Position numbers and translations under genes: made by a program
Assembly: GCF_014642835.1 (NCBI RefSeq)
Contig: NZ_BMJA01000001.1
Span: 1,721,267 to 1,785,266, forward strand
DNA: 64,000 nucleotides
Source: Dyella nitratireducens
GTDB lineage: Bacteria > Pseudomonadota > Gammaproteobacteria > Xanthomonadales > Rhodanobacteraceae
Direction: 5' to 3'
Notes under the pieces: generated by a model
Told to the model about the DNA's origin: nothing
The model's input: only the letters and a program-made list of their open reading frames with translations
Database searches by the model: none
Shown here: in pieces, positions 12,979 to 63,428 of the stretch
Layout: each line of letters starts with the position of its first letter
Numbering within the stretch: position 1 is the stretch's first letter

Positions 12979-13052
12979 GTAGGTTGGGGTGCAAACCCCA
13001 ACGTCAGGATGTATGTGTGCAGGGCGATGTTGGGGTTTGCATCCCAACCTAC
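12979..13052. repeat. REP doublet copy 3; its right end supplies the stop of the TonB-like gene
   Basis: Full doublet, GTAG to CTAC, lying between convergent genes. On the minus strand the terminal CTAC reads GTAG, and its TAG (13049-13051) is the in-frame stop of the gene starting at 13579. The opposite gene ends at 12955 on its own TGA. Confidence 0.92.
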
Positions 13053-13579
13053 ATGTTTACCGGGGACGCCGATTCACCCTTAAATCGCATCGGCAAATCC
13101 CCGCTCATCCCTTGCGGATGATCTGCCGGTACCGCAAAGCGCCAATGCCGTGCGATCTCTATGGCATTTGTATCCAGGATGTCATCGCCGCTGGATTGTG
13201 CGACCGATGCGCCAGTCACCTGCCCTTGCCCATCCACCGTCACATGCAGCACCACGTTGCCGACATCATGGTTTTCCGTGCGTGACGTCGGCAGTGACGA
13301 GGCAGGTGTTGCGATCGGCACCAGCGACACATCAGCGCTGACGGGCGCAACCGGCGTAGCGGCGACTTCATCTTGCGCAGGTATGTAGCGCGGCCGTGCA
13401 GCGATCAACGCAGGCTTGGGATGCACGTTGCGATGGTGAGCGGCATGAGCTGCATGCAAGGGCCCTGTTTCCGGCGGCGTTGCGCGCCCTGCCGTCTGGT
13501 CACTCAGCCACTGCGTACCTGCTGCGCCGATCACCAGCGCAAGCAAACTCAAGGTAGCAGTGACGCGTAGCCGGGGCAT
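13049..13579 (-). CDS. TonB-family C-terminal domain protein (energy transducer-like)
   Basis: 176 residues. One N-terminal membrane anchor (TATLSLLALVIGAAGTQWL), a Pro/Ala-rich periplasmic stretch, and from about residue 105 a TonB C-terminal domain: VVLHVTVDGQGQVTGASVAQSSGDDILDTNAIEIARHWRF (core VDGQGQVTGASVAQSSG). Such short TonB-like proteins are common in Xanthomonadales with many TonB receptors; whether this one works with ExbB/ExbD or is a structural homologue is open. Starts 6 bases after the fadI stop on the same strand. Its stop codon is provided by REP copy 3, leaving a short tail (GESASPVNM). Confidence 0.8.
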   Translation of the reverse strand: MPRLRVTATLSLLALVIGAAGTQWLSDQTAGRATPPETGPLHAAHAAHHRNVHPKPALIAARPRYIPAQDEVAATPVAPVSADVSLVPIATPASSLPTSRTENHDVGNVVLHVTVDGQGQVTGASVAQSSGDDILDTNAIEIARHWRFAVPADHPQGMSGDLPMRFKGESASPVNM

Positions 13580-13585
13580 GAAAAA

Positions 13586-14872
13586 TCACGGTCGTTCGAG
13601 AATCGCGACGACACCCATGCCGCCAGCGGTGCAAATGGAAATCAGGCCGCGGCCGGAGCCCTTCTGTTCGAGCAATTTCGCCAGCGTGGCGACGATGCGC
13701 GCACCCGTAGCGGCGAAGGGATGTCCCACTGCAAGGCTGGAGCCATTCACATTGAGCTTGGCCGCATCGATACTGCCAAACGGCGCATCCAGGCCCAGCC
13801 GGTTCTTGCAGTAATCCGCCGACTCCCATGCACGCAGCGTGCATAGCACCTGGGCGGCGAAAGCTTCATGGATTTCGTAGAAATCGAAATCCTGCAAGGT
13901 GAGGCCGTTGCGCTTGAGCAGGCGCGGCACGGCAATGGTGGGCGCCATCAGCAGCCCTTCACCATGCACGAAATCCACCGCGGCCACTTCGGCATCGCGC
14001 AAGTAAGCCTGGATCTTCAAGCCACGCCTGGCCGCCCATGCTTCGTTGGCCAGCAACACGGCGGCGGCACCGTCGGAAAGGCCGGTGGAATTGCCGGCAG
14101 TGAGGGTGCCGTGGTTCGAGGTTTTATCGAAGGCCGGTTTCAATCCGGCCAGCTTGTCCATGCTGGTGTCGGGGCGCAGGAAGCCATCGCGCTTCAGGCC
14201 ACGGAACGGAATGACCAAGTCATCGAAGAAACCCGCGTCATAGGCCACCGCCAGTTTGCGATGGCTGTCCAGCGCAAGGCGATCCTGCGCCTCACGGCCG
14301 ATGTGCCATTCGCGCGCCATTTTTTCACAGTGATCGCCCATCGACATGCCGGTACGCGGTTCGGCCACGCCGGGAAAAGCCGGTTTCAGCTCACTGAAAG
14401 AAAAACCACGTACTGCGGTTTTCAACTTGTCCAGCGGCGTCCTGGCGCGATTCACGGCCAGAAGGCGCTTGCGCAGGCGCTGGCTGTAGACGATCGGCAC
14501 GTCGCTGGTGGTGTCCGAGCCGCCCGCAATGCCGGCCTCGATCTGCCCGGTGGCGATCTTGTTGGCGATGATGATGGCGTTGTCCAGCGACGTACCGCAG
14601 GCGCGGGCGGTGGTGATGCCCGGGGTGGTCGGGGCCAGGCCGGAGCTGAGCAGGGCTTCGCGGGCCAGGTTCCACTCGGAGGAGTGCTTGATCACCGCTC
14701 CCATCGCCACTTCGCCCAGTTCCAGGCCATGCAGCCCAAAACGCTCGACCAGCGCGCCCAGCACCTTTACCGACATGCCGAAGTTGCCGACGTCCGCATA
14801 GGCAGTGTTGTTGCGACAGAACGGGATGCGCACACCGCCGATGACGCCAACGCGCTGCTGCGTGTTTTCCAT
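13586..14872 (-). CDS. fadI: Acetyl-CoA C-acyltransferase (thiolase, FadI-like)
   Basis: 428 residues from ATG at 14872; a much longer in-frame extension to 15370 overlaps the divergent gene and is rejected. Thiolase residues are all present: nucleophilic Cys92 in ARACGTSLDNAI, the His in EIHEAFAAQ, the HPFAATGAR loop, and the second Cys in CTAGGMGV. Reaction: CoA-dependent cleavage of 3-ketoacyl-CoA in beta-oxidation. Length and motifs suit FadI, the partner of FadJ, better than biosynthetic PhaA-type thiolases (~390 aa), but no FadJ gene is adjacent. Divergent from the gene at 15015. Confidence 0.88.
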   Translation of the reverse strand: MENTQQRVGVIGGVRIPFCRNNTAYADVGNFGMSVKVLGALVERFGLHGLELGEVAMGAVIKHSSEWNLAREALLSSGLAPTTPGITTARACGTSLDNAIIIANKIATGQIEAGIAGGSDTTSDVPIVYSQRLRKRLLAVNRARTPLDKLKTAVRGFSFSELKPAFPGVAEPRTGMSMGDHCEKMAREWHIGREAQDRLALDSHRKLAVAYDAGFFDDLVIPFRGLKRDGFLRPDTSMDKLAGLKPAFDKTSNHGTLTAGNSTGLSDGAAAVLLANEAWAARRGLKIQAYLRDAEVAAVDFVHGEGLLMAPTIAVPRLLKRNGLTLQDFDFYEIHEAFAAQVLCTLRAWESADYCKNRLGLDAPFGSIDAAKLNVNGSSLAVGHPFAATGARIVATLAKLLEQKGSGRGLISICTAGGMGVVAILERP

Positions 14873-15014
14873 AGCCTTGACTTGGGTCCCAATGCACCGA
14901 TTCAGCAAGGCTAACCCGCGCGGCGCCCTGGCGGAACCCCGAACGGACGCTTGATCAGCGAATGTTAGACTTGCGGGCTGTTTTAAATGACAAGGGGCGA
15001 AGGAACGGCAGCCC

Positions 15015-16258: not shown

Positions 16259-18748
16259 ATGCCCAAGGTGACGCACCCCGTTGAAGACGATCCGTCCGCC
16301 CCGGAACTGGGCCAGGATCTGCTCGCACACGTCGTCCAGGGCGTGCCTGCGCTCATCACGTATATCGATCTGCACGAGCACTTCGTGTTCGCCAACGAAG
16401 CGCATCGCCGCTGGTTCGATCTCGACCCGGCCCAGATCATAGGCAAGCCAGTCAGCGACGTGCTGGATCCGGAAAGCTATCTGCGCGTGCGCGCCGCGCT
16501 GCTGCAAGCATTGGGCGGCCACGATTCCAGCTATGAAGGGCCGCTGTTCAACCGCAGCCAGAGCCGCTACGTGCACGGCAGTTTCACGCCCGATCGCGAT
16601 CCGCAGGGCCAGTTGCGCGGCGTGTTCACCGTCTTCACCGACATCACCGAGCGCCACGCGCTGGAAGAACAGCTGCGCGAAAGCGAACAGCGTTTCTCGC
16701 AGGCGTTCGAGCATGCTGCTGTCGGCATGGCCATGATCCTTCCTGATGGCCGCTATCAGCGCGTGAACGCCGCCCTGTGCGCCATGCTCGGCTATACCGA
16801 AGCGCAGTTGCGCACGATGACCTGGCGCGAGGTGACCCATCCGGACGATCTGCCGCTGAGCGAAGCGCTCGCCGGACAAGTCACAAGCGGCCGGCGCGAA
16901 GCGTTCCAGACTGAAAAACGCTACATCCATCGCGATGGGCACGTGGTGTATGTGCTGCTGAGCGTTGCGCAAGTGCGTAGCGAAAGCGGACAGCTCAATT
17001 ACGTGGTCAGCCAGGTTCAGGACATCACCAAGCGCAAGCAATACGAAGAAGCGCTGTTCCGCGAGCGCCAGCTGGCCGAGGTGACGCTGAATTCGATCGG
17101 CGACGCAGTCATCACCACCGACGTGGCACTCAACATCACCTCGCTCAATCCCATCGCCGAAGCGATGACGGGATGGTCGAGTGCCGATGCAAAAGGCAGC
17201 CCGCTCGACGACATCTTCCGCTTGCGCGACATCGGCAACCGCCAGCCGCTCGACAATCCTTTGCGCCAGGCCATGCGACGCAACGCCATCGTGGATTTCA
17301 GCGGGCGGGCCATCCTGCTTCATCGCAACGGTTTCGAAACACCGATCGAAACCTCGTCGGCCTTGATCCACGACCACACCGGCACCGTCACCGGCGGCGT
17401 GCTGGTGTGCCACGACATCAGCGAAAACCGCACGCTCGCGCTGAAGATGATCCAGCTGGCCCAGCACGACACGCTCACCGGCCTGCCCAATCGCAGTCTG
17501 CTGTATGCGCGCATCGAACAGGCCACGACCATGGCGATGCAGCGCCATCGCCAGTGTGCGTTGCTTTATCTGGATATGGATCACTTCCGCCGCGTCAACG
17601 ATACGCTTGGCCATGGCGTGGGCGACCAGGTGCTGCAAGCGTTGGCGCAGCAGATCCGCGGCGTGCTGCGCGACAGCGAGGACATGGCCTTCCGCTACAA
17701 CGGCGACGAATTCGTGGTGCTGCTGCCACGCGTGGACGATGCGGACGAAGCCGCCAGCTTTGCGCGCAAACTGCTCGATGCCTGCGCCCAGACGCAGGTG
17801 CCCCACATACCGCCGCTCGAGTTGCGTGCCAGCGTCGGGATCAGCCTGTTCCCACGCGACGGCATCGAGCCGGATGCGCTGGTGCGCACCGCCGATGCCG
17901 CCATGTACGAAGTGAAAAACCAAGGCCGCGACGGCTACTGCTTCTATGCGCCGGAAATGAGCCAGCGCTCGGCCGCCAGCCAACGCATCGAGAACGTGCT
18001 GCGCCACGCGCTGATGCACGACGAACTCAGGCTGCAATACCAGCCCAAAGTGGACGCGAAGCTTGGCCACATCGTCGGTGCGGAGGCCCTGCTGCGCCTG
18101 TATGTGCAGGGCGAAGAAATGTTCACGCCGGACCAGTTCATTCCGGTGGCGGAAGATACCGGCCTGATCGTTTCCATCGGCACCTGGGCGTTACGCGAGG
18201 CCTGCATGCAGGCGCGCACCTGGCAGCGCGAGGGACATCCCATTTCGATCTCGGTGAATGTCTCGCCGCTGCAGTTCCAGTACGCCGGCTTCTACGAACG
18301 GCTCGACGGCATTCTCAACGAAACCGGCCTTGATCCAAGCCTGCTGGAACTGGAACTGACCGAACGCACCATGATGAGCGGCGGCGACGGCACGATTCGC
18401 CTGTTGCGGCGTATCCGCCAGCGCGGCGTGCGGCTGTCGCTGGATGATTTCGGCACGGGCTACAACAGTCTTTCGTATCTCAAGCATTTCCCGGTCGATG
18501 CCTTGAAGATCGAACGCGCGTTCGTGCGCGACATCGCGCAGGATGCGGAAACCGCAGCGATCACCCGCGCCATCATCGGCATGGCACGCAGCCTCAACAA
18601 GGATGTGATCGCCGAAGGTGTGGAGACGGAAGTGCAAAGCGCGTTCCTGCGCGACGCGGGTTGCTCGCACATGCAAGGCTTCTTGTTCGGTGCGCCGATG
18701 CCGCCGGAGAAGTTCGAGGAACGCCTGACGATCAATGGCAATTTGTAG
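16259..18748 (+). CDS. PAS-PAS-PAS-GGDEF-EAL cyclic-di-GMP signalling protein
   Basis: 829 residues, no membrane segments, so cytoplasmic. Three PAS-type sensor regions occupy about residues 20-135, 145-265 and 275-395 (each ends with DITER, DITKR or DISEN). The GGDEF domain follows (~405-565) with the active loop NGDEF at 481-485 in place of GGDEF. The EAL domain (~575-820) has EALLR with Glu609, NVSPLQF, ELTERTM, DDFGTGY at 729-735 and AEGVET; the KID motif is KIE (Glu752). Phosphodiesterase activity is likely though not certain; cyclase activity is less likely given the Asn. Its stop TAG lies in the GTAG of REP copy 4. Confidence 0.9.
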   Translation: MPKVTHPVEDDPSAPELGQDLLAHVVQGVPALITYIDLHEHFVFANEAHRRWFDLDPAQIIGKPVSDVLDPESYLRVRAALLQALGGHDSSYEGPLFNRSQSRYVHGSFTPDRDPQGQLRGVFTVFTDITERHALEEQLRESEQRFSQAFEHAAVGMAMILPDGRYQRVNAALCAMLGYTEAQLRTMTWREVTHPDDLPLSEALAGQVTSGRREAFQTEKRYIHRDGHVVYVLLSVAQVRSESGQLNYVVSQVQDITKRKQYEEALFRERQLAEVTLNSIGDAVITTDVALNITSLNPIAEAMTGWSSADAKGSPLDDIFRLRDIGNRQPLDNPLRQAMRRNAIVDFSGRAILLHRNGFETPIETSSALIHDHTGTVTGGVLVCHDISENRTLALKMIQLAQHDTLTGLPNRSLLYARIEQATTMAMQRHRQCALLYLDMDHFRRVNDTLGHGVGDQVLQALAQQIRGVLRDSEDMAFRYNGDEFVVLLPRVDDADEAASFARKLLDACAQTQVPHIPPLELRASVGISLFPRDGIEPDALVRTADAAMYEVKNQGRDGYCFYAPEMSQRSAASQRIENVLRHALMHDELRLQYQPKVDAKLGHIVGAEALLRLYVQGEEMFTPDQFIPVAEDTGLIVSIGTWALREACMQARTWQREGHPISISVNVSPLQFQYAGFYERLDGILNETGLDPSLLELELTERTMMSGGDGTIRLLRRIRQRGVRLSLDDFGTGYNSLSYLKHFPVDALKIERAFVRDIAQDAETAAITRAIIGMARSLNKDVIAEGVETEVQSAFLRDAGCSHMQGFLFGAPMPPEKFEERLTINGNL

Positions 18749-18849
18749 GTTGGGGTGCAAACCCCAACGCCGCCATGCATGGCAATGCCGATGATCTGGA
18801 TGGCACAAGTCGTTTAGATGGCGACGTTGGGGTTTGCACCCCAACCTAC
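18745..18849. repeat. REP doublet copy 4; supplies the stop codons of both convergent genes
   Basis: Longest copy here (105 bases) because the spacer between its two hairpins is about 55 bases. The left GTAG provides TAG (18746-18748) to the plus-strand GGDEF/EAL gene; the right CTAC provides TAG on the minus strand (18846-18848) to the HDOD gene. There is no other sequence between the two genes. Confidence 0.93.
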
Positions 18850-19868
18850 GTTCGGAACACTCTGCGCAACTCCTGCTGCGCACGCTCTACCAACACCTCC
18901 GGCAAGCGATCCGCACGCATAGATGCGGGCGGCGTACCACGATCGATCACATGGTTGTCGGCCAGCATCTGGACCATCGCAAGGTGATCAGCAGCCAGCA
19001 GCGCATTGCCCAGCTCGGTCACCGGCGCTTTGCCGCGCACGTCCAGCCGTTCGCGCAACGCCACGATCACGTTCGGCGGCAGCTCCCAATGCTTGGCGGC
19101 ACGTAGCGTGAGATGGTTGGCCAAGTGGGTGAAACTGAGCAGGAAGGCCCGGCTGAAAACGCCAAGTGTGGGCGGCGCTTCCTGATCGAGCACACGAATC
19201 ATCGCACCTACGCCCGCGTTGCAGACGATGCCGGCAAGATACGCTTCAAACGGATCGCCCTGTCCGCGAGCCAGATAGGTGCTGACATGTGCACAGCGTT
19301 CCGCGTGATCCCATAGCCGTTGGCCGGCGGCGTGGCCGAGCATGCCTGCACTAGCCTGCAGGATCGGCTTCATCACATGTTGCGTCACCATCTGGCGCAG
19401 GCCATCGTGACCGAGCAGCACGACGGCATGCTGCAAACTGGTGATCGCCCGCGCCGTGCGGTAGTGCGCACTCTGGCTGACCCGCATCACTTCGCCGACC
19501 AGCACCGGATCGCGCCCGATCAGCTTGGCGACCTTGGTGCCGTCGGAGTTGTCGCTCTTGAGCAGGCGCAGCAACTGCGGCAGCACCTCAGGCAAACGCG
19601 GCAGGGTGGTAATATCGAAGCGATCGCCACCGCATAGCTCGTCCAGCCGCCGCAGCATCACCTGCTCCTGCGGGCGCATGTCCGCCACCTCGGATCCGGG
19701 CATACCCAGCACCAGGCGATAGAACCAGTCCTGGATGTCCGCACTGCTCAGTGTCGGGATCGGTTCCTGCGGCTCTTTTTCCTCCGGCCACGGCAAGACC
19801 ACGCTGAGACGCGGCCGTTCTTTTACCGGCTCGTCCCCCGCAAACAGTCGTTTCCAGAATCCGCTCAT
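18846..19868 (-). CDS. HDOD-domain protein
   Basis: 340 residues from ATG at 19868 (an upstream start at 20018 would add 50 residues of low-complexity sequence and is rejected). After a charged N-terminus (VKERPRLSVVLPWPEEKEPQEP) the HDOD domain spans roughly residues 90-290: LPRLPEVLPQLLRLLKSDNSDGTKVAKLIGRDPVLVGEVMRVSQSA (core LIGRDPVLVGEVMRVSQSA) and GHDGLRQMVTQHVM. HDOD proteins are non-catalytic HD-related signalling adaptors. Convergent with the GGDEF/EAL gene, with stops at the two ends of one REP doublet; no functional link is proven. Confidence 0.85.
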   Translation of the reverse strand: MSGFWKRLFAGDEPVKERPRLSVVLPWPEEKEPQEPIPTLSSADIQDWFYRLVLGMPGSEVADMRPQEQVMLRRLDELCGGDRFDITTLPRLPEVLPQLLRLLKSDNSDGTKVAKLIGRDPVLVGEVMRVSQSAHYRTARAITSLQHAVVLLGHDGLRQMVTQHVMKPILQASAGMLGHAAGQRLWDHAERCAHVSTYLARGQGDPFEAYLAGIVCNAGVGAMIRVLDQEAPPTLGVFSRAFLLSFTHLANHLTLRAAKHWELPPNVIVALRERLDVRGKAPVTELGNALLAADHLAMVQMLADNHVIDRGTPPASMRADRLPEVLVERAQQELRRVFRT

Positions 19869-20040
19869 AGCCTGCCTAGGTTTGTCCCCTCGGGAGAGAT
19901 ATCGGCAGGGTCTAGCGGGGCTTGATGCCCCATGTCCGTCGCCCTGGCGAAGGCCAGGCCCGGCGTCTCGATCGGTGCGCTGAAAGTCACTGGCCCCGGC
20001 GTACGCCGGGACGGCCATTCAAGGTTCTTTATACAAGTCC

Positions 20041-20066: not shown

Positions 20067-20077
20067 GACGTTCTGCA

Positions 20078-23951: not shown

Positions 23952-24024
23952 GCAGGTTGGGGCGCAAACCCCAACATTCCCTGCGCACATGCATCTCGAT
24001 GTTGGGGTTTGCACCCCAACCTAC
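23952..24024. repeat. REP doublet copy 5, between the permease and doxX genes
   Basis: Full doublet; the left boundary is mutated (GCAG instead of GTAG) and the left loop is CGCAAA. Right boundary CTAC at 24021-24024, eight bases beyond the doxX stop at 24032. The TAG is not in the doxX frame. Confidence 0.9.
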
Positions 24025-24031
24025 CGCAGCG

Positions 24032-28372: not shown

Positions 28373-28410
28373 GCATTTTCCTTTTAGTCGGGATGTGCAC
28401 GTTGCTCAGT

Positions 28411-28428: not shown

Positions 28429-28433
28429 TGAAC

Positions 28434-28507
28434 GTAGGTTGGGGTGCAAACCCCAACATTGGGTTGCATAGGTGCACAGAAATGTTGGGGTTCGCACCCC
28501 AACCTAC
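28434..28507. repeat. REP doublet copy 6, between the GH9 and GH20 genes
   Basis: Full GTAG...CTAC doublet; the right loop is TTCGCA instead of TTTGCA. It lies in the 178-base gap between two genes transcribed the same way, so it would be part of their shared mRNA if they form an operon. Confidence 0.92.
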
Positions 28508-37400: not shown

Positions 37401-38435
37401 ATGAAATCCGCTCGTGACACCCTGATGTACAACGAGGCGCAGGAAAGCGCCGCTACCGTCGAACGGCAGCTCACGCAAAACGCAGCGATCCTCAAAGCGC
37501 TCGGCGAACGACTGCGCGCGAATCCGCCGCGCTTCATCGTCACCTGCGCGCGCGGCAGCTCCGATCACGCTGCGGCGTATGCGAAATACGTCTTCGAAAC
37601 ACGGCTCAACCTGGTCACCGCCTCCGCGTCGCCATCCATCGCGTCCATCTACGATGCGAACCTCAAGCTCGATGGCGCGCTGTTCGTGGCGATTTCGCAA
37701 TCGGGCAAGAGCCCCGATCTGCTGCGCAGCGCAGAAGCAGCAAAGCAGGCCGGTGCTTACGTGATTGCGCTGGTGAACGTTGAAGATTCACCGCTCGCAG
37801 CCCTGGCCGACACGGTGGTTCCGCTGCGCGCCGGCCCCGAACGCAGCGTGGCGGCGACCAAGAGCTATCTCGCCACGCTCGCTGCCGTGCTGCAGCTGAC
37901 GGCGCATTGGTCCAATGACGACAAACTGCATGCCGCGATCGCGCGTCTGCCCGACGATCTGCGCCGCGGCTGGGATGGCGACTGGAGCGCGCTGGAGCAA
38001 GGGCTGGTCGGCGTGCACAACCTGTTCGTCGTCGGCCGTGGCTACGGTTTCGGCGCCGCGTTGGAAGCGGCACTCAAGCTCAAGGAAACCTGTGGTCTGC
38101 ATGCCGAGGCATTCAGCGCCGCTGAAGTGAAGCATGGCCCGATGGCGCTGGTGGGCGAAGGCTTTCCGGTGCTGTTCCTCGCACAGGACGATGGCACGCT
38201 GGAAAACACGCTCGCCGTCGCCAACGAATTCCGTTCGCGCGGTGCACGCGTGTGGGTGGCGGCGCCTGGTGCACAAGGCCCTGATGCACTGCCGCTGCCT
38301 GGCGGCATCGATCCGATCGTCACGCCGCTGCTGGCCGTGCAAAGTTTCTATCGCGCCGCCAGCGCCTTGTCGCTGGCACGCGGCTACGATCCGGACGTAC
38401 CACCGCATCTGCGCAAGGTCACGGAGACGGTGTGA
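37401..38435 (+). CDS. SIS-domain glucosamine-6-phosphate deaminase (NagB-II type)
   Basis: 344 residues with two SIS domains: the first carries VTCARGSSDHAAAYAKY and AISQSGKSPDLL, the second VVGRGYGFGAALEAALKLKETCGLHAEAFSAAEVKHGP (core EAALKLKETCGLHAEAF). This is the isomerase half of GlmS without the glutaminase domain, the form called NagB-II, which replaces classic NagB in many proteobacteria. Reaction: GlcN-6-P to fructose-6-P and ammonia. Its stop overlaps the nagA start by one base (TGATG), and the gene follows nagR by 85 bases. Confidence 0.88.
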   Translation: MKSARDTLMYNEAQESAATVERQLTQNAAILKALGERLRANPPRFIVTCARGSSDHAAAYAKYVFETRLNLVTASASPSIASIYDANLKLDGALFVAISQSGKSPDLLRSAEAAKQAGAYVIALVNVEDSPLAALADTVVPLRAGPERSVAATKSYLATLAAVLQLTAHWSNDDKLHAAIARLPDDLRRGWDGDWSALEQGLVGVHNLFVVGRGYGFGAALEAALKLKETCGLHAEAFSAAEVKHGPMALVGEGFPVLFLAQDDGTLENTLAVANEFRSRGARVWVAAPGAQGPDALPLPGGIDPIVTPLLAVQSFYRAASALSLARGYDPDVPPHLRKVTETV

Positions 38436-39598
38436 TGCCTCCGAATCCGCTTATCGCCCTCGTCAACGGCCGCGTGCTCGGCGACCACGGCCCCCGCGAA
38501 GGCCTGGCTGTGCTGGTACGCGGCAAGCGCATCGTCGCGATCGTTGCGCATGACGATCCACGCCTTGCCGATGCGCAGAAACACGATCTGCATGGCCATC
38601 TTTTGCTGCCTGGCTTTATCGACGTGCAGGTGAACGGCGGCGGTGGCTTGCTGTTCAACGATGATCCCAGCGTGGATACCTTGCGCGGCATCGTCGAAGC
38701 GCATCGCCAGTTCGGCACCACCGGCATGCTGCCTACGCTGATCACCGATACGGCAGACATCATGCGCGCCGCGTTGCAGGCCGTAGACGATGCGATCGAG
38801 CAGCGCGTGCCGGGCATTCTCGGCATCCACGTGGAAGGGCCCTTCCTCGCCAATGCGCGCAAGGGCATTCACAACGCCGACCTGTTCCGGCTGCCAGATG
38901 ATGACGATGTCGAAGCGCTGATCGCTCCGCACAAAGGTCCGGTGATGCTGACGTTGGCACCGGACCAGGTACCGCTGCCGGTCATCGCACGCCTGGCTGG
39001 CGCCGGCGTGGTCGTCGTCGCCGGCCATACCGCCGCCGATTACGCCACCACACGCGCCGCGCTGGATGCCGGGGTGTGCGGCTTCACCCATCTCTACAAC
39101 GCCATGACGCCACTCGCCAGCCGCGATCCGGGTGTCGTGGGTGCCGCGCTGGACGATCCATATAGCTGGTGCGGTTTGATCGTAGACGGCCACCATGTGC
39201 ATCCCGCGACGCTGCGCGTCGCCATCGCAGCCAAGCAGCGCGGCAAATGCGTACTGGTCACCGACGCCATGCCGCCCGTCGGCAGCGCCCGCCCCGACTA
39301 CGTGCTCAACGGCCAGACCATCATCATGCGCGACGGCATTTGCCAAAACGAAGCCGGCGTGCTGGCGGGTTCCGGCTTGGACATGGCGAGCGCCGTGCGC
39401 CATACCGTGCAGATGCTTGGCTTGCCGCTTGCGGAAGCATCACGGATGGCTAGCGGCTATCCGGCAGCGTGGATTGGGCTGGAACGCACGCATGGCCGGA
39501 TAGCAGCCGGGTATCAAGCGGATTTTGCGGTGATGGATGACGCGCTGGTAGTGCGCGAGACGTGGGTAAACGGCGTCGCTTATCCGGCTACCGCGTAG
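38435..39598 (+). CDS. nagA: NagA, N-acetylglucosamine-6-phosphate deacetylase
   Basis: 387 residues from ATG at 38435 (the GTG one codon earlier is less likely). Amidohydrolase fold with GFIDVQVNGGGG, metal ligand Glu in HVEGPFL, His in VAGHTAADY and FTHLYNAMTPL, DGHHVHP, and the catalytic Asp in VTDAMPPVG. Reaction: deacetylation of GlcNAc-6-P. The reading frame ends ...ATA with the TAG taken from the GTAG of REP copy 7, so the final residues border the repeat directly. Confidence 0.95.
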   Translation: MPPNPLIALVNGRVLGDHGPREGLAVLVRGKRIVAIVAHDDPRLADAQKHDLHGHLLLPGFIDVQVNGGGGLLFNDDPSVDTLRGIVEAHRQFGTTGMLPTLITDTADIMRAALQAVDDAIEQRVPGILGIHVEGPFLANARKGIHNADLFRLPDDDDVEALIAPHKGPVMLTLAPDQVPLPVIARLAGAGVVVVAGHTAADYATTRAALDAGVCGFTHLYNAMTPLASRDPGVVGAALDDPYSWCGLIVDGHHVHPATLRVAIAAKQRGKCVLVTDAMPPVGSARPDYVLNGQTIIMRDGICQNEAGVLAGSGLDMASAVRHTVQMLGLPLAEASRMASGYPAAWIGLERTHGRIAAGYQADFAVMDDALVVRETWVNGVAYPATA

Positions 39599-39670
39599 GT
39601 TGGGGTGCAAACCCCAACATCGCTTCAAGTGGGCGGCGTTGTTGGGTTACGCTGCGCTAACCCAACCTAC
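39595..39670. repeat. REP doublet copy 7; supplies the nagA stop codon
   Basis: Left arm intact; GTAG at 39595 gives TAG (39596-39598) to nagA. The right arm has diverged (TTGGGTTACGCTGCGCTAACCC) but keeps pairing and the CCAACCTAC end, i.e. compensatory-looking change or recombination with another REP subtype. Confidence 0.88.
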
Positions 39671-45182: not shown

Positions 45183-45255
45183 GTAGGGTGGGGTGCAAAC
45201 CCCAGCATCGTGCACCATCAAGCGTGGCAACGTTGGAGTTTGCACCCCAACCTAC
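45183..45255. repeat. REP doublet copy 8, upstream of the thr leader region
   Basis: Full doublet with three substitutions (GTAGGGTGGGG, CCCAGC, GTTGGAGTT). A further decayed left arm is at about 45126-45150 (TAGGTTCGAATGTAAACCCTGA). Both lie in non-coding DNA between the small orphan gene and the thr operon; I see no gene in 44955-45381. Confidence 0.82.
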
Positions 45256-49084: not shown

Positions 49085-49100
49085 AGGCAAGCCTCAGTTT

Positions 49101-49174
49101 GTAGGTTGGGGTGCAAACCCCAACATTGCGATCCAGGAAGGCGTAGCCATGTTGGGGTTTGCACCCCAACCTAC
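49101..49174. repeat. REP doublet copy 9; supplies the sulfotransferase stop codon
   Basis: Full doublet between convergent genes. The right CTAC gives TAG on the minus strand (49171-49173), the in-frame stop of the gene beginning at 51174. thrC ends on its own TGA outside the element. Confidence 0.93.
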
Positions 49175-51174
49175 GTGCGATAGCGTTCCAAAGCATCGCC
49201 AAGCATTTCTTTCAGCGGCGCAAGGTGAGGCGCGTACTTCGTCCACTGATCGAGGCCATCGCGGAAGATCGGCTGGCGTACCTGCTCGGAACTGGCCGTG
49301 CGCACACTGCGCTCGGTCTTATGGAACGCCAGACAACCCATCTCGAATGGCAGACCGCAGAAATCGAGAATGCGGCGTACGCTGCCTTCCAAGTCATCGA
49401 CCACGTCTTCGTGATGGATACGCAATACACGGCCCGGCAAAGCGTCATCCCAGTGTTGCATCAGGTCGAGATAAGTACGGTAGTAACGCGCGATATCCTC
49501 GACGCTGTAGGTGAACTCCTGACCGGCAGCAAAAAGCTGCTTGAGATTGCTGAAGCAGCAAGCCATGGGTTCGCGGCGCGCATCGATGATTTTCGCGTTC
49601 GGCAGCATCAAGTGGATCAGGCCAAGATGCCGGAAGTTGTTCGGCATCTTGTCGATGAAGTAAGGCTTGCCGCTGCGATAGATGCGGGTGTCATGCAGGT
49701 ACTTCTCACCGAGTTTGCGGAAATCCTCGGGCTGCATCTCGGCAAGCACCCCTGGATAGCGCGGATCATCCAGATTCGGATCACGCCCCTGCAGATCGAG
49801 CACGATGCGGGGGATATCGGCCAGTTCCTGCGTACCCTCGACATGCGAGTGCGAGGCGAGAATCTGCTCGATCAGGGTCGAACCCGCACGCGGCAGGCCG
49901 ACGATGAATATCGGATCGGAACTCGGATCACCCGCACTTGCGCGGCTTGCCAGAAACTCCCCGGTGCACACCTCGATCTGCCTGCGCGTATTGGTTTCGA
50001 TGATCTCCGGGCGATAGCGGCTTTCGGAACGCTTGAGCGCGTTGCCTTGTTCGTAATGGCGCCACGATTCGGCGTAATCACCACGATCTTCCAGCGCCTT
50101 GCCTAGCGCGAAGCACAGATGGTAGCGGTCAGCCAGCGGCGTATCGCGCGAGGCTTCTTCGTCACGCATGCGCGCGATTTCATCGTCGGAGAAACGGTAG
50201 GTCTTGAGGTTCGCCAAACTCCAGTACGCGTCACCAAAGTTGGAACGCGCCGTGGTGGCCGCACGATACGCGTCGATCGCCTCGGCCTGCTTGCCTTGCG
50301 TCTTCAGCGAATGAGCCAACGACAGGTGCAGGTCAGCTGCACCAGGCATGTCGCGCAAAAGTTCCCGATAGAGCGTGATCGCGCGCTCGTGTTCACCCAG
50401 GCCGACGCTCGCACTGGCGTAAAGCGTGCGATAGTCGAGATGGTTGGGCTCGATAGCCAGCAGCTTTTCGATCTCTTCGCAGGCGCGCTGATACAAATGT
50501 CGTTCGAACAGTACGCATGCATAGTCATAGCGTGCCGTTCGGTAATCCGGAGCGATCTTCAATACCGCTTCGAGCAGAATCTCAGCGTCATCGAGCACAT
50601 CGCGCGCCAGGCCGATGCGTGCAAGCAGGCGCATGGCTTCGACATCGTTGCCCACACGCAGCAGATAGGGACGAATGACGTTTTCCGCCGGTTCCAGATC
50701 ACCATCCGAGAACAGGCCGGTGGCGTGGACAACGTCGGGCGCCAGCCGCTTGAGTGTGGCGACATGCGCCGCTGCCGTCGCGGCATGGGCCGTGTCGCCG
50801 ACCATGCGATACAGGCCTTCGAGCATGTGCCAGCTCGCCGGCAAGGCGGGATTGATGTTGACGGCACGCAACAAGGCATCGATCGCGCGCGGCGCATCGC
50901 GCATCGCTACATAGCAGAGGCCCCGCTCTTCATGCAGGCGGCTGAAATGGGGATAGCCCTGTTCCAGTTGCGCCAATGTCGCCAGGGCAGCATCGATCTG
51001 GGCAAGGTAGCGCTGGTTCTTGGCGATCAGGTGGAGCACATCACGATGATCCGGCGCATCGGCGGCCAACGCCTGGGCAGCCTGCAGCGCCTGCGCATGC
51101 TGACCCTGCTGCTGCAGTTCGCGTATGCGTTGGATGCCCTGCTCCACCGATGTTTCGATCGCCGTGGCGTTCAT
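49171..51174 (-). CDS. TPR-repeat sulfotransferase
   Basis: 667 residues. About residues 1-390 are helical TPR-like repeats (YKQ-like units such as PALPASWHMLEGLYRMVGDTAHAATAAAHVATLK, core SWHMLEGLYRMVGDTAHAA). From ~415 there is a sulfotransferase domain with the PAPS 5'-phosphosulfate loop FIVGLPRAGSTLIEQIL (about 422-438) and a later 3'-phosphate region around VEGTQELADIPR. No signal peptide, so cytoplasmic. Downstream of a TonB receptor gene (71-base gap, same strand); this receptor-sulfotransferase pairing recurs in Xanthomonadales and sphingomonads. Substrate unknown; tyrosine or glycan sulfation are both possible. Confidence 0.87.
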   Translation of the reverse strand: MNATAIETSVEQGIQRIRELQQQGQHAQALQAAQALAADAPDHRDVLHLIAKNQRYLAQIDAALATLAQLEQGYPHFSRLHEERGLCYVAMRDAPRAIDALLRAVNINPALPASWHMLEGLYRMVGDTAHAATAAAHVATLKRLAPDVVHATGLFSDGDLEPAENVIRPYLLRVGNDVEAMRLLARIGLARDVLDDAEILLEAVLKIAPDYRTARYDYACVLFERHLYQRACEEIEKLLAIEPNHLDYRTLYASASVGLGEHERAITLYRELLRDMPGAADLHLSLAHSLKTQGKQAEAIDAYRAATTARSNFGDAYWSLANLKTYRFSDDEIARMRDEEASRDTPLADRYHLCFALGKALEDRGDYAESWRHYEQGNALKRSESRYRPEIIETNTRRQIEVCTGEFLASRASAGDPSSDPIFIVGLPRAGSTLIEQILASHSHVEGTQELADIPRIVLDLQGRDPNLDDPRYPGVLAEMQPEDFRKLGEKYLHDTRIYRSGKPYFIDKMPNNFRHLGLIHLMLPNAKIIDARREPMACCFSNLKQLFAAGQEFTYSVEDIARYYRTYLDLMQHWDDALPGRVLRIHHEDVVDDLEGSVRRILDFCGLPFEMGCLAFHKTERSVRTASSEQVRQPIFRDGLDQWTKYAPHLAPLKEMLGDALERYRT

Positions 51175-51244
51175 GCGTAAACCTTAAAAAAAGAGGGTGG
51201 GCTTGCGCCCACCCAATTCTACTTGCAGTTGCGGAGTAAACAGA

Positions 51245-53893: not shown

Positions 53894-54123
53894 GGTGGTA
53901 TCCCCCAAGGGTGTTATAGCCGGAAGGCGCCGGCACAAAGGCCTGATACTGCAGCTAAGCAAAGGCTAAAGAACGGCGATGAAACGCTTATGACGTGGTC
54001 TAGCCAAGTTCGCTGGCTGTCTATGTCTTTTGCTTACCCTAACGAGTAAAACGGACCGGCACGTGGCCATGTACGCAGGCATCATGCATTGCAGTGTGCG
54101 CATGAAATTGCGGTCGATGACAC

Positions 54124-54197
54124 GTAGGTTGGGGTGCAAACCCCAACATTGGGATGCACGTGCGCAGGAAGATGTTGGGGTTTGCACCCCAACCTAC
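54124..54197. repeat. REP doublet copy 10, between phnM and the TonB receptor
   Basis: Full GTAG...CTAC doublet in the gap between the TonB receptor start and the phnM stop (54219). It lies 21 bases beyond phnM, so it does not supply that stop codon. The remaining gap (53894-54123) carries the receptor promoter region; I could not identify boxes confidently. Confidence 0.92.
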
Positions 54198-54218
54198 GCA
54201 CTACATCGAATAAAACGA

Positions 54219-55361: not shown

Positions 55362-55412
55362 GGTCATCTCAACGCAGATAGGCAGCAATAACGGATTGAT
55401 GGGCGTTGTGCA

Positions 55413-59393: not shown

Positions 59394-59839
59394 CACTCGC
59401 CTCGCACCACGGTAAAGAATTCCACCTTGCTTGCCGCAGCCTTGCGGCTCGCCTCCTCGCGCCGTTCATCAAGCGAACGGCGCAACGGCTCGATCACCTG
59501 CTGGCGCAGTCGCGGCGCTTGTTCGGGGTCTTGCATCAGCGCATCCGCAAACGCAGCCAGTTCGGCATGGCGCGTCTGGCTGCCGCGCACCCAGGCATGG
59601 CCGATGCGCTCACCCACCTGCACGCTGCAGCGAGTCACCGTGACCTCGCCGAAATTGAATTGCGGACCGGTGCCGCCCATCCGGCCACGCAGCATGTACA
59701 GACCGGTCTGGGCCGGACGCAACCAGGCGGTATCGGCAGGCGGCGCAAAGGCATCCATCGCCGCGGCGAGCTCGGCCGGATCGGCCTGGGCCAGCAGCGA
59801 CATCCATTGCGCGCGCGCCAAGTGGGGGGAGGTGTCCAT
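59393..59839 (-). CDS. phnG: PhnG, C-P lyase complex subunit
   Basis: 148 residues from ATG at 59839 (CTAGGAA upstream), chosen over the 59860 start. Features: LRPAQTGLYMLRGRMGGTGPQFNFGEVTVTRCSVQ (core MLRGRMGGTGPQFNFGE), a PhnG signature, and VRGSQTRHAELAAFADALM. First gene of the minus-strand phnGHIJKLM operon; its promoter region is shared with divergent phnF. Confidence 0.94.
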   Translation of the reverse strand: MDTSPHLARAQWMSLLAQADPAELAAAMDAFAPPADTAWLRPAQTGLYMLRGRMGGTGPQFNFGEVTVTRCSVQVGERIGHAWVRGSQTRHAELAAFADALMQDPEQAPRLRQQVIEPLRRSLDERREEASRKAAASKVEFFTVVRGE

Positions 59840-59875
59840 GCGTATTCCTAGGCTTGTCACAAATATCTAGTTATC

Positions 59876-59889
59876 TAGACAGGTTGAGG
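59876..59889. promoter_or_regulatory. PhnF operator-like repeat 1
   Basis: TAGACAGGTTGAGG. It is preceded by ATCTAGTTATC, so ATCTAGACAG completes a TCTAGA-centred palindrome reminiscent of PhnF boxes (TGTCTAGACA type). It lies 37 bases upstream of phnG. Confidence 0.6.
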
Positions 59890-59952
59890 CGCGACCAGAC
59901 GCCTCTCACGAGACATTCCAGCAGGCCAGCGTGCCGTTGCCATGACGGTGAT

Positions 59953-59966
59953 TAGACAGGTTGAGG
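59953..59966. promoter_or_regulatory. PhnF operator-like repeat 2
   Basis: A second exact TAGACAGGTTGAGG, 77 bases from the first, ending at the GAGG that serves as the ribosome-binding site of phnF (ATG 59974). Binding here would block both phnF expression and the divergent phnG promoter region. Confidence 0.6.
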
Positions 59967-59973
59967 ACGTGGT

Positions 59974-60705
59974 ATGAGCGAAATCGAACGGGGACGGGGC
60001 GTGGCGCTGTGGAGCCAGATCAGTGGCATCCTCGCGTCCGACATTCTCAAGGGCCAGCTTCGCCAGGGAGAACAGCTGCCCTCGGCGCAGGAGCTGGCGG
60101 CGCGCTTCAACGTCAACCGCCACACCGTGCGCCGCGCCATCGCCGCACTGGAGCAGCGCAACCTGGTGCGCACCGAGCAGGGCCGAGGCACCTTCGTGCA
60201 GGAGCAGACGCTGGATTACGTGATCAGCCGCCGCACGCGCTTTACCCAGAACATGCGCAACCTCAATGTCGAGGCCGACATGGAGTACCTGGAAGACGCA
60301 CGCGAGTTGCCGCCGCCGCAGGTGGCGCAGGCGTTGGGCCTGGATCGCAACGAATACGTCTACCGCATCGAAACTCTGGACCGCGCTGACGGCCACATCG
60401 TCTGCCACAGCACGGCCTATTTTCCCGCCACGCGCTTTGCCGGACTGCCCGCGGTGTATCGCCGGCTGCATTCGGTCACACGTACGCTCGCGGAGTTTGG
60501 TGTGGCCGATTACGAGCGCAAGCACACGCGCGTTTCCGCACGCATGCCCGATGCGAACACCGCGCGTTTGATGAAGCAACCGGCGAGCCGTCCGGTGCTT
60601 TACGTGCAATCGATCAATGCCGACACGCGTGGCGTGCCGGTGCAATATGGCATCACGCGCTTCTCGGGTGATTGGGTGCAACTGGTGCTGATGGCAGACC
60701 ATTGA
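59974..60705 (+). CDS. phnF: PhnF, GntR/HutC-type regulator of phosphonate genes
   Basis: 243 residues. N-terminal winged HTH with HTVRRAIAALEQRNLVRTEQGRGTFVQ (core VRRAIAALEQRNLVRTEQG), then a UTRA ligand-binding domain to the C-terminus (DWVQLVLMADH is typical of HutC-type ends). Role: likely repressor of phnGHIJKLM and of itself through the two TAGACAGGTTGAGG sites. The stop overlaps the next ATG by one base (TGATG). Confidence 0.9.
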   Translation: MSEIERGRGVALWSQISGILASDILKGQLRQGEQLPSAQELAARFNVNRHTVRRAIAALEQRNLVRTEQGRGTFVQEQTLDYVISRRTRFTQNMRNLNVEADMEYLEDARELPPPQVAQALGLDRNEYVYRIETLDRADGHIVCHSTAYFPATRFAGLPAVYRRLHSVTRTLAEFGVADYERKHTRVSARMPDANTARLMKQPASRPVLYVQSINADTRGVPVQYGITRFSGDWVQLVLMADH

Positions 60706-61361
60706 TGCGCTACGCCGTGTATTTCTGTCCGGCCGCAGGCAGCGAGCTGGAGGCCTTCGGGCGTGAGTGGCTGTCTACTGACGCGGTTCCAGGCGTTACA
60801 TCGGAGCGTTTGCGTGTCCTGACGAGCAATGTGCGCCGCTATGGCTGGCACGCCACACTTTGCGCACCTTTTGCCTTGGCCGAACAGGCCCGTTACGACG
60901 ATGTGCGCGAGAACGTGGCCGATATCGCCCAGCGCACACAGGCTTTCGAATTTGCATTGCATCTGGATCGACTAGCCGGCTTTCTGGCGTTGCGCCCGTC
61001 CGCCGGCGAAACCCCTGCCTGGATGTTGGCTGAGCGCTGCGTGCGACGTCTGAATGCGCTGCGTGCGCCGGTGACAGACGAGGCATGGCAGCGCAAGGCC
61101 GTGAAACTCGATGCGGTCGAACGTTCGCTGTTTCGCCAATTTGGCTATCCCTATGTGCTGGACCGCTATCGCTTCCACATGACCTTGTGCGCACCGGCCA
61201 GCGAGGAGGAGGAAAGCGCCTTGCAGGCTTGGTTGTCGCCCTGGGTGGCAAGTCTTCCGCCGGCACGTATCGATGCGATGACGATTTGCCGTGAAGCAGA
61301 ACCTGGGCAACCGTTCGAACAGATCGAACGTTTTCCATTCGGCGTGGGACTTGCCGCATGA
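60705..61361 (+). CDS. DUF1045-like 2H phosphoesterase family protein of the phn cluster
   Basis: 218 residues. Two HxT motifs, His49 (GWHATLCAPF) and His158 (FHMTLCAPAS), spaced ~109 residues apart, define the 2H phosphoesterase superfamily. DUF1045 proteins are commonly encoded beside phnN in alpha- and gammaproteobacteria. In C-P lyase metabolism the cyclic ribose product must be opened; PhnP normally does this and no phnP is visible in this window. I infer that this protein may fill that role, which is unproven. Coupled to phnF (TGATG) and phnN (ATGA). Confidence 0.75.
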   Translation: MRYAVYFCPAAGSELEAFGREWLSTDAVPGVTSERLRVLTSNVRRYGWHATLCAPFALAEQARYDDVRENVADIAQRTQAFEFALHLDRLAGFLALRPSAGETPAWMLAERCVRRLNALRAPVTDEAWQRKAVKLDAVERSLFRQFGYPYVLDRYRFHMTLCAPASEEEESALQAWLSPWVASLPPARIDAMTICREAEPGQPFEQIERFPFGVGLAA

Positions 61362-61897
61362 ATACAGGGCATCTGTATTACGTGATGGGTCCCTCTGGCG
61401 CAGGCAAAGACAGCGTCTTGGCCTGGGTACGCGAGCACGGTGCCGCCTACGGCGTGGTGTGTGCGCATCGTTACATCACGCGGCCGGCGCATGCTGGTGG
61501 CGAAAACCATGTGGCGCTGAGTGACGCAGAGTTTCAATCGCGCGAGCAGCGCGGCTTGTTCGCGCTCACTTGGCAGGCGCACGGGCTTCGCTATGGCATC
61601 GGCAATGAAGTAGCGCATTGGCTGGCACGTGGCGCAGATGTGTTGGTGAATGGATCGCGTGGCGCGTTTGCCTTGGCGTGCGAGCGGTTTCCAGCACTGC
61701 GGCCCGTGTTGATTACGGCGAGTCCCGAGGCGATAGCGCAACGTCTTGCCGCGCGCGGACGAGAATCGGACGAGGACATCGCTGCACGGATCGCCCGCGT
61801 GAATGCCTACCCGGTACCACCGGGCAGCGTGGTGATCCGCAACGACGGCAATCTTGCCGATGCCGGTGCGAGCTTGTTACAGGCAATTCGCTCGTAG
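61358..61897 (+). CDS. phnN: PhnN, ribose 1,5-bisphosphate phosphokinase
   Basis: 179 residues. P-loop GPSGAGKDSVLAWV, guanylate-kinase-like fold with RYITRPAHAGGENHVALS. Reaction: ribose 1,5-bisphosphate to PRPP, the end of the C-P lyase route. Overlaps the 2H gene by four bases. Its stop TAG (61895-61897) lies in the GTAG of REP copy 11. Confidence 0.92.
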   Translation: MNTGHLYYVMGPSGAGKDSVLAWVREHGAAYGVVCAHRYITRPAHAGGENHVALSDAEFQSREQRGLFALTWQAHGLRYGIGNEVAHWLARGADVLVNGSRGAFALACERFPALRPVLITASPEAIAQRLAARGRESDEDIAARIARVNAYPVPPGSVVIRNDGNLADAGASLLQAIRS

Positions 61898-61966
61898 GTT
61901 GGGGTGCAAACCCCAACATCGGAATGCATGTGTCGACGGAATGTTGGGGTTTGCACCCCAACCTAC
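61894..61966. repeat. REP doublet copy 11; supplies the stop codons of both convergent genes
   Basis: The left GTAG contributes TAG to phnN (plus strand), and the right CTAC contributes TAG to the MFS gene (minus strand, 61963-61965). The two genes are separated only by the element. Confidence 0.94.
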
Positions 61967-63282
61967 GCTGCTGCTGGTACTGCAACCGTCACCTTCGAAC
62001 GCCGTGCCTTTTCGTGAAAATACAGCGCGGACACCAGCGTGATCACCATGCCGATACTCGACAGCGTCATCAGCGTATCGGCATAGAACGATGCCCATGA
62101 AAGATGCATGCCGCCGAATTCCTTCACCAGAATCACCAGCACGCTGCCCATGTAGCCGCTGCTGTCGGCGATATACATCACGAAGCCCACGTTGGCGGTC
62201 ACCCGGAACGTCGCCAGCATGCGCTCGAAGAACGTGGCGTTGTACGGCACGTAAGCGAGATAGAGGCCGAAGCCGCTGAAGCCAACCCAGGCCAGCGGAT
62301 CGATCATGCCGTGGCGATGCAGCCAGGTGCTGAACACGGCGATGGCAAAACCGCTGAAAATCAGTACATGATTGAGCATCAACGCCTTGAGGTTGTCGCG
62401 CACGACCATCGTAAGCGCGGTAATGATCAGCACGGCAATGGCAATCGGTACTTCGGTCTCGGTGAACACGGAAGCATCGCCGCCACGACCAAGATCGCTC
62501 CAGATTTCCACGGCAAAGTTGTCGCGGAAATCGCGCGTTACCGTCAGTGCGACATAGGCCATCACGATCATCGCAATGCCGGCCAGGAAGCGGGAAAGAA
62601 ACGCACGGCGTGTGGAGGCATCCATCGGCATGCGCACGCTGCGAGCGGCAATGTCCGCCGCATCGGGAGCAGGAAGGTGTTCGAGTATCCACGTACCCAG
62701 ATACAACGGCGGTACGAATAAAAGCCCCGTGACAAACGGCATCCAGAATTCGGTGACGTGCCAACGTACCATCAGCCACACGCCCACCGTCTTCACCACG
62801 CCCGATCCGACGATAAAGCTGGCGCACATGCACGCGCCCATCAGCTCGGTGCCACGGCGCCCTTCCAGATACCCGAAGACGACACCCCACACCATGCCCA
62901 ACGGCAGGCCGTTGAGGAAAAGAAACGGGATATTCCATGGTGCGGGAATCAGCGCGAAACCGAGCAGAGCAATCCACGAAAATCCAATCAATCCTGCCAG
63001 CGTGTGGGCGCGGCGATGGCGCTGGATTTCCGCAATCCAGGTGATGCCGCGCACTTTGCTCAGCATGTAGCCCATCACCTGCGCGATCACCAGCCACACT
63101 TTGTAGTCGATACCAGCCAGGTGCATGCCGTCGAACGAGGCCGCGGTGAAGGGTTTGCGAAAGGCATACATCGACGCATAAGCGATGAACGCAGCGCCGC
63201 CAGCCAGCAGATTGATCGCCATGGGATGGCGGATGCGCGATGGAAACGACACGAAATCTACCCGACTGGTGGCCACAACCAT
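61963..63282 (-). CDS. MFS-type membrane protein (DUF5690-like)
   Basis: 439 residues from ATG at 63282. About 12 hydrophobic segments; the first has AAFIAYASMYAFRKPFTAASF, followed by KVWLVIAQVMGYMLSKVRG, a transporter-type loop, and later SGFGLYLAYVPYNATFFERML. The YASMYAFRKPF pattern corresponds to what I know as the DUF5690 family, an MFS branch without assigned substrate. Convergent with phnN, ending on the TAG of REP copy 11. Phosphonate transport is a speculation: phnCDE is not in the window. Confidence 0.8.
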   Translation of the reverse strand: MVVATSRVDFVSFPSRIRHPMAINLLAGGAAFIAYASMYAFRKPFTAASFDGMHLAGIDYKVWLVIAQVMGYMLSKVRGITWIAEIQRHRRAHTLAGLIGFSWIALLGFALIPAPWNIPFLFLNGLPLGMVWGVVFGYLEGRRGTELMGACMCASFIVGSGVVKTVGVWLMVRWHVTEFWMPFVTGLLFVPPLYLGTWILEHLPAPDAADIAARSVRMPMDASTRRAFLSRFLAGIAMIVMAYVALTVTRDFRDNFAVEIWSDLGRGGDASVFTETEVPIAIAVLIITALTMVVRDNLKALMLNHVLIFSGFAIAVFSTWLHRHGMIDPLAWVGFSGFGLYLAYVPYNATFFERMLATFRVTANVGFVMYIADSSGYMGSVLVILVKEFGGMHLSWASFYADTLMTLSSIGMVITLVSALYFHEKARRSKVTVAVPAAA

Positions 63283-63354
63283 GCCGGGCAGGATGATGGG
63301 CAGAGGTTACAGTCGCGTGGCGGCCGCTAACCTGCGGAGCGAGCCTGGTCTAGC

Positions 63355-63428
63355 GTAGGTTGGGGTGCAAACCCCAACGTCGTGGTCTATGCACGCATGG
63401 CAGTGTTGGGGTTTGCACCCCAACCTAC
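63355..63428. repeat. REP doublet copy 12; supplies the stop codon of the GH1 gene
   Basis: Full doublet. The right CTAC gives TAG on the minus strand (63425-63427), the stop of the beta-glucosidase. The left GTAG lies in the gap upstream of the MFS gene. Confidence 0.93.

What the first reader, a model, noticed from the sequence alone, without database searches (positions are those of the whole stretch)
12979..63428. REP doublets whose GTAG/CTAC ends serve as stop codons for eight genes
About 12 full doublets (3603, 9900, 12979, 18745, 23952, 28434, 39595, 45183, 49101, 54124, 61894, 63355) each have the GTAG tetranucleotide known from RAYT-mobilised REPs (seen directly). In six of them a boundary TAG is the in-frame stop of a neighbouring gene: the TonB-like gene, the GGDEF/EAL gene, the HDOD gene, nagA, the sulfotransferase, phnN, the MFS gene and GH1. 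Similar GTAG REPs in Stenotrophomonas are known to lie near stop codons. Either insertion favours gene ends, or elements that replaced C-terminal codons were kept. Such elements may set protein ends and shape mRNA 3' ends.
Basis: partly seen in the sequence, partly recalled or inferred. Interest (0 to 1): 0.85.

Follow-up and report, generated by a model that had tools for sequence, protein, structure and literature searches.

The report
REP repeats that supply stop codons
In this Dyella genome a mobile repeat of about 74 bases often sits exactly at the end of a gene so that its own edge (TAG) is the gene's stop signal, and comparison with related species shows that the repeat takes over the stop while leaving the protein almost unchanged.

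Summary
Twelve inverted REP doublets lie at the stated places; six supply the TAG stop of eight genes. The genome is a Dyella. In 1.66 Mb of contig C1, 45 of 151 family-A unit ends that face a gene tail are exactly that gene's stop, and none of 206 units is read through. Seven of 47 doublets facing two tails end both genes. The elements are GTAG REPs; RAYT genes flanked by this family and by two sister families were found. Orthologues speak against the idea that repeats set protein ends: 12 of 12 testable proteins end within two codons of the commonest length in relatives, 6 at the same codon, and relatives mostly use TGA. At nagA three species carry different REP families but the same TAG codon. 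That GTAG REPs 'often provide' TAG stops is in print (PMC3733652). The count, the orthologue test, the two-gene cases and the shared TAG were not found in eight searches. Whether the element lands on a ready GTAG, or takes over by small losses beside it, is open: ordinary GTAGs near gene tails are stops just as often.

The parts
12979..13052 (.). REP doublet, family A; its right end is the stop of the TonB-like gene 13049-13579(-)
   Evidence: relative G013 same length with TGA, G004 same length with a decayed A-type REP as stop
13049..13579 (-). TonB_C protein, 176 aa, stop supplied by REP
   Evidence: Pfam PF03544 E 1.5e-11; one codon shorter than 5 of 8 relatives
16259..18748 (+). PAS-GGDEF-EAL protein, 829 aa, stop supplied by REP
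   Evidence: one codon longer than 9 of 11 relatives
18745..18849 (.). REP doublet, family A, 105 bp, stop of two convergent genes
18846..20018 (-). HDOD protein, stop supplied by REP
38432..39598 (+). nagA, stop supplied by REP
   Evidence: orthologues
39595..39670 (.). Hybrid REP doublet: left unit family A, right half family C; stop of nagA
49101..49174 (.). REP doublet, family A; stop of the sulfotransferase gene
49171..51174 (-). TPR-sulfotransferase, 667 aa, stop supplied by REP
61358..61897 (+). phnN, stop supplied by REP
   Evidence: TIGR02322 above cut-off; two codons shorter than 8 of 12 relatives
61894..61966 (.). REP doublet, family A, the whole space between two convergent genes and stop of both
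   Evidence: predicted RNA hairpin -59.6 kcal/mol for 101 nt, z -8.0
61963..63282 (-). DUF5690 (MFS-like) protein, stop supplied by REP
   Evidence: 16 of 16 relatives end at the same codon with TGA
63355..63428 (.). REP doublet, family A; stop of the GH1 gene
63425..63988 (-). Part of the GH1 glycosidase gene listed in the window (449 aa in the gene call that runs past the window); stop supplied by REP
3603..3675 (.). REP doublet, family A, not a stop
8444..8471 (.). Single REP palindrome, diverged
9900..9973 (.). REP doublet, family A, not a stop; G013 and G002 have a family-B doublet at this place
23952..24024 (.). REP doublet, family A, left tag GCAG, not a stop; G013 has family B here
28434..28507 (.). 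REP doublet, family A, not a stop
45183..45255 (.). REP doublet, family A, diverged, not a stop
54124..54197 (.). REP doublet, family A, not a stop

Best explanation
The repeats are REPIN-type doublets of a GTAG REP family whose likely mover is a RAYT (REP-associated tyrosine transposase). Shown: they occupy gaps at gene 3' ends, none of those sampled lies inside a called gene, at about 30% of tail-facing ends the element's edge is the stop, and the proteins keep their length to within two codons. Inferred: a doublet lands in the few bases around a stop codon. Outcomes that leave the gene running out of frame into the element are purged, because each unit is open in its other two frames (read from the consensus), so that a misframed gene would gain at least eight residues and run into a strong hairpin. 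Outcomes, or later small losses of the bases between old stop and element, that bring the edge TAG into frame at the old protein end are tolerated, and the native stop, mostly TGA, is lost. Because this can happen at each end on its own, some doublets become the stop of two convergent genes. Since all three local REP families share the GTAG end, the stop can outlive replacement of the element behind it.
For: RAYT: the C2 RAYT meets NF047646 (197 bits, cut-off 80); perfect A units on both sides of the C6 RAYT, C doublets around the C2 RAYT, B units around the G013 and G002 RAYTs, C around those of G004 and G008. Location: A elements in 52 of 188 convergent, 57 of 910 co-directional and 5 of 189 divergent gaps. 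Stops: 45 of 151 tail-facing ends, 0 of 206 units read through; 45 of 46 overlaps of a gene with a unit are the edge stop, p about 1e-20 against 1/3 (the 46th is the one-base overlap). Protein ends: 12 of 12 genes within two codons, 6 unchanged. Stops of relatives that are not REP edges: 51 TGA, 12 TAG, 10 TAA in 73 gene rows. Ends act alone: A-A doublets facing two tails have 0/1/2 stop ends in 23/17/7 cases; about 21/21/5 expected if independent (my arithmetic). One possible takeover seen directly: G004 and G000 share an A element at one gene with alignable spacer; G004 has TAA and 3 nt before it, G000 ends on the REP TAG (x4_32).
Against: The share of stops among ordinary GTAGs near tails is the same (48 of 170, p = 0.26), as a GTAG-target model predicts without any takeover. 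No clean empty site was found: flanks of the nearest relative are 68-89% identical and intergenic DNA rarely aligns. Gap lengths show no net loss at REP sites (15 gaps, p = 0.36). The one takeover pair has no proven direction. Three of six REP-stop genes differ by one codon from REP-free relatives against 15 of 157 ordinary genes that differ at all (p = 0.02), so the end is kept closely, not exactly.
Confidence: 0.55

Rival explanations
1. GTAG (CTAC on the other strand) is the insertion target: the RAYT puts the doublet next to a GTAG that was already the gene's TAG stop, so the stop was never new.
For: Share of stops among non-REP GTAGs near tails is like that of REP ends (48 of 170 and 45 of 129). 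nagA in G004 has TAG at the same codon with its REP 9 nt further on. HDOD in G002 and three other REP-stop genes have a relative with TAG and no A, B or C edge there. TnpAREP cleaves at C|T and GTAG acts as guide (PMC8266576, passages); CTAC contains a C|T.
Against: Relatives of REP-stop genes mostly have TGA (10 TGA, 4 TAG, 1 TAA in 15 gene pairs that are not independent); the TAG share is like that of genes with a REP merely nearby (7 of 27) and below the TAG-TAG retention of ordinary TAG genes (13 of 24, p = 0.11). One landing can account for one end only, yet 7 doublets are stops at both ends.
Confidence: 0.22
2. The arrangement is selected for function: a stop codon buried in the foot of a strong hairpin tunes termination, ribosome release or mRNA decay of the gene.
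For: In three of three predicted RNA folds the UAG is paired in the foot of a long stem. 98 of 151 tail-facing ends lie within 15 nt of the stop, the distance at which E. coli REPs are reported to lower translation (quoted in PMC12306157, passages). REP-bearing gaps are shared with G013 and G002 more than expected (stratified odds ratios 5.5 and 11; unstratified p 0.02 and 0.03).
Against: No excess of in-frame backup TAGs among genes that stop just upstream (phases 33/27/25). By gaps, sharing with G004 is 0 of 27, though by matched flanks 3 of 7 G000 places hold a REP in G004. In G005 and G006 0 of 8 matched places each hold an A, B or C element. No expression data.
Confidence: 0.17
3. Truncation: elements landed well inside genes and the survivors lost C-terminal codons.
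For: Against the commonest length in relatives phnN is two codons shorter, GH1, TonB and x4_32 one.
Against: 12 of 12 testable genes within two codons; 6 unchanged and 2 one codon longer.
Confidence: 0.04
4. Coincidence of an edge TAG with gene ends.
For: The non-REP GTAG control has the same share of stops.
Against: 45 of 151 ends at one offset, at most 7 at any other, none read through.
Confidence: 0.02

Closest known systems
GTAG REP superfamily (Di Nocera et al. 2013, PMC3733652; passages and section 15 seen)
   Same: GTAG tag at the stem foot, dimers, preference for convergent and co-directional gaps, often within 20 bp of stops, termini 'often provide' the TAG stop
   Different: States the stop supply in one sentence, with no count or homologue comparison in the parts seen; reports intragenic REPs in other species, none was found in the 1.66 Mb here
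REPINs of Pseudomonas fluorescens SBW25 (Bertels and Rainey 2011, PMC3116915; passages seen)
   Same: Inverted doublet with near-invariant ends and a spacer as the moving unit
   Different: Different sequence family; the search for 'stop codon' in the main text gave no hit
SMAG repeats of Stenotrophomonas maltophilia (Rocco 2010; recalled, not read)
   Same: GTAG tag, monomers and dimers (recalled)
   Different: Different stem sequence (recalled)

Membership tests
GTAG REP / REPIN mobilised by RAYT | GTAG tetranucleotide at the 5' foot of a palindrome | tested here: met
   195 of 206 A units carry GTAG, 9 GCAG, 2 GTAA
GTAG REP / REPIN mobilised by RAYT | Inverted doublets with conserved units and variable spacer | tested here: met
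   95 A-A doublets and 22 single A units among 137 elements; mean pairwise identity 0.96 in the first 120 units and 0.50 in the 43 spacers of 26 nt; units were picked by likeness, spacers were not
GTAG REP / REPIN mobilised by RAYT | High copy number, outside genes | tested here: met
   311 + 299 matches with at most 2 mismatches genome-wide; 0 of 206 inside called genes in 1.66 Mb
GTAG REP / REPIN mobilised by RAYT | Cognate RAYT gene flanked by the same REP | tested here: met
   G000:C6:222104-222565 has perfect A units on both sides and is 71% identical to the C2 RAYT, which meets NF047646; the C6 protein itself was not scanned against that model
GTAG REP / REPIN mobilised by RAYT | Mobility by the RAYT | not testable with these tools
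   needs strains or experiment
Intrinsic terminator | G+C-rich hairpin followed by a run of T | tested here: not met
   10 matches in 49001-64000 (11.6 expected), none inside the four doublets there; the other eight doublets were not scanned, and the scan does not cover loops over 8 nt

The most novel reading that the evidence does not exclude
The GTAG edge is a handed-on stop codon: successive RAYT/REP families replace one another at the same gene end while the TAG between gene and element is kept, so that a stop codon outlives the mobile element that brought it, and a growing share of a genome's TAG stops (46 of 215 in the 1.66 Mb sampled) comes to belong to mobile DNA. nagA (A/C hybrid in G000, B in G013 and G002, all with the same TAG codon) is the model case.
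Probability: 0.3. Interest if true: 0.6.

Novelty: new member of a known kind. Interest (0 to 1): 0.42.

Why it matters
In the sampled 1.66 Mb about one TAG stop in five (46 of 215) is part of a mobile element. This is a countable, testable case of how repeats settle at gene ends without harming proteins, and of how they may push a genome towards TAG. Several strains of one Dyella species would show directly whether the stop is found or brought.

Tried and rejected
In-situ conversion of stems at shared places: spacers of A elements in G000 do not align with B elements at the same place in G013 or G002 clearly better than with others. That speaks for re-insertion or saturation rather than stem conversion, but B-B pairs between G013 and G002 mostly fail to align too, so it is not decisive. 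Net loss of intergenic DNA at REP sites: not seen in 15 gaps. Clean empty sites: five places were realigned with up to five relatives, none gave a clean junction. At window 3603 three relatives lack the element and about 50 nt beside it, and in G000 the last codons of the neighbouring gene look changed. Backup-stop selection: flat phases for G000 family A. In G013 family B the phase is skewed (21 of 34 stops lie a multiple of 3 before GTAG); unexplained. Other Y1 proteins of G000: the C3 and C4 genes have no A unit at up to 6 mismatches within about 1.5 kb. Literature: eight searches of a library without most subscription papers and without bioRxiv.
Full report
What is there. The window lies in a Dyella genome (5.68 Mb, 14 contigs). 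Twelve doublets at the listed positions consist of two inverted copies of GTAGGTTGGGGTGCAAACCCCAAC (family A), mostly 72-74 bp in all. One (23952) has GCAG at its left end, one (39595) has a right half of a sister family C, and 18745 is 105 bp long. A single diverged palindrome lies at 8444. Eight ORFs end exactly on a boundary TAG of six doublets; two doublets (18745, 61894) end two convergent genes.

How common it is. In C1:441267-2105266 (80 fetched tiles plus the window) my own gene finder called 1288 genes. Of 206 A units with at most 4 mismatches, 151 face a gene tail, 52 a gene head, 3 neither. Distances to the stop are short: 98 of 151 lie within 15 nt. At 45 of 151 the stop is the element's own edge. 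No unit lies inside a called gene and no gene reads on into one; one stop codon shares a single base with a unit. Of 215 TAG stops, 46 belong to A (44) or C (2) elements. Sister families behave likewise on a smaller scale: B in G013 7 of 54 and in G002 2 of 12 tail-facing ends, C in G000 2 of 20, again none read through. My finder missed the TonB gene of the window, so the counts are lower bounds.

Against which chance. Against even placement the stop offset is far overfilled, and 45 of 46 gene-unit overlaps are the edge stop (p about 1e-20 against one frame in three). But ordinary GTAGs near gene tails are stops about as often (48 of 170 against 45 of 129, p = 0.26). This result is against my reading in so far as it is what a GTAG-target model predicts.

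What it does to proteins. Twelve REP-stop genes have at least one relative whose stop is not a REP edge. Against the commonest length in those relatives the G000 protein differs by 0 in six genes (HDOD, sulfotransferase, DUF5690 and three outside the window), +1 in EAL and nagA, -1 in GH1, TonB and x4_32, and -2 in phnN. Four of the twelve rest on a single relative, or on two that agree, outside the main set, so depth varies from 1 to 16 relatives. For DUF5690 all 16 relatives have the same length and TGA. Over the 73 gene rows the stops are 51 TGA, 12 TAG and 10 TAA. In a separate alignment-based count 6 of 6 REP-stop genes with relatives free of A, B and C units are within two codons, but 3 of 6 differ by one, against 15 of 157 ordinary genes that differ at all (p = 0.02): the end is kept closely, not exactly. 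The last codon is NCG in 35 of 45 REP-stop genes against 10.5% of all genes, because the base before GTAG is C in about three quarters of A units in every setting.

The mobile system. Seven of 16 Dyella genomes have a match to the C2 RAYT. Of nine such genes six were read with their flanks: the G000 gene on C6 is flanked by perfect A units, that on C2 by C doublets, those of G013 and G002 by B, those of G004 and G008 by C. In three of these six (G000 C2, G004, G008) the RAYT's own stop is the TAG of a C element, decayed in G004. A half-sites at up to 3 mismatches number 649 in G000, 220 in G004, 70 in G002, 51 in G003, 24 in G013 and 1 in G006; the ten other genomes of the genus have none. G003 has A sites but no RAYT match.

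Shared places. At several places G013 or G002 carry a B doublet where G000 carries A. Of G000 places with both flanks matched, a REP of family A, B or C is present in 7 of 14 in G013, 6 of 10 in G002, 3 of 7 in G004, 0 of 8 in G005 and 0 of 8 in G006. Counted by gaps between orthologous gene pairs, occupied gaps coincide more than expected with G013 (5 both, 8 and 10 single, 103 neither, p = 0.009) and G002 (4, 4, 1, 33, p = 0.003), not with G004 (0, 4, 3, 30). With short non-convergent gaps left out the stratified odds ratios are 5.5 and 11 for G013 and G002. Spacers do not show common descent between A and B. At nagA the same TAG codon is the edge of an A/C hybrid in G000 and of B in G013 and G002; G004 has TAG there with a C element 9 nt on; the twelve other species end one codon earlier in the alignment, ten with TGA and two with TAA, and some of these have other GTAG palindromes a little downstream.

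Mechanism. Two models remain. In the takeover model an element lands within a few bases of the stop, and the TAG comes into frame at the old end. In the target model GTAG is the landing site. Seven A-A doublets that are stops at both ends (of 47 facing two tails; 17 at one end, 23 at none) cannot come from one landing on one ready GTAG, which favours takeover for at least one end. The TGA in most relatives favours it too. One gene (x4_32) shows the same element in two species, once as the stop and once 3 nt behind a TAA. I hold takeover more likely, not shown.

RNA. Predicted folds of three doublets give a long stem that includes UAG, far stronger than shuffles (z -6.2 to -8.9). A role in termination or decay is possible and untested; the E. 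coli distance rule comes from passages of PMC12306157, not from this organism.

Prior work. Di Nocera 2013 (PMC3733652; listing, passages, section 15; [quoted passage not shown] PMC2817692, PMC12306157, PMC3116915 and PMC8266576 were seen as passages. So the kind is known; the count, the orthologue test and the shared TAG at nagA were not found in eight searches.

Noticed in passing
window 61963-63282 (-): The DUF5690 (MFS-like) protein has 79-89% identical relatives, nearly all Dyella/Rhodanobacter or MAGs, and then mainly Bacteroidota at 43-51% among the best 80 of 130 loci; suggests transfer between these groups.
   Followed up: no
L003 (G000:C2:428600-429139), L264, L265: RAYT genes whose own stop codon is the TAG of a flanking REP (G000 C2, G004, G008).
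   Followed up: partly
window about 28410-28434 and G000 tiles: A further repeat (GTCATTCCGGCGAAGG... and similar) abuts the 28434 doublet and recurs in the tiles.
   Followed up: no
G013 family B units (L044-L063): 21 of 34 stops within 60 nt upstream of a B unit lie a multiple of 3 before GTAG; no explanation.
   Followed up: no
G003: 51 A half-sites at up to 3 mismatches but no RAYT match at E 1e-6.
   Followed up: no
window 3603-3725: Three relatives lack the REP and about 50 nt beside it; the last codons of the neighbouring gene look changed in G000.
   Followed up: partly
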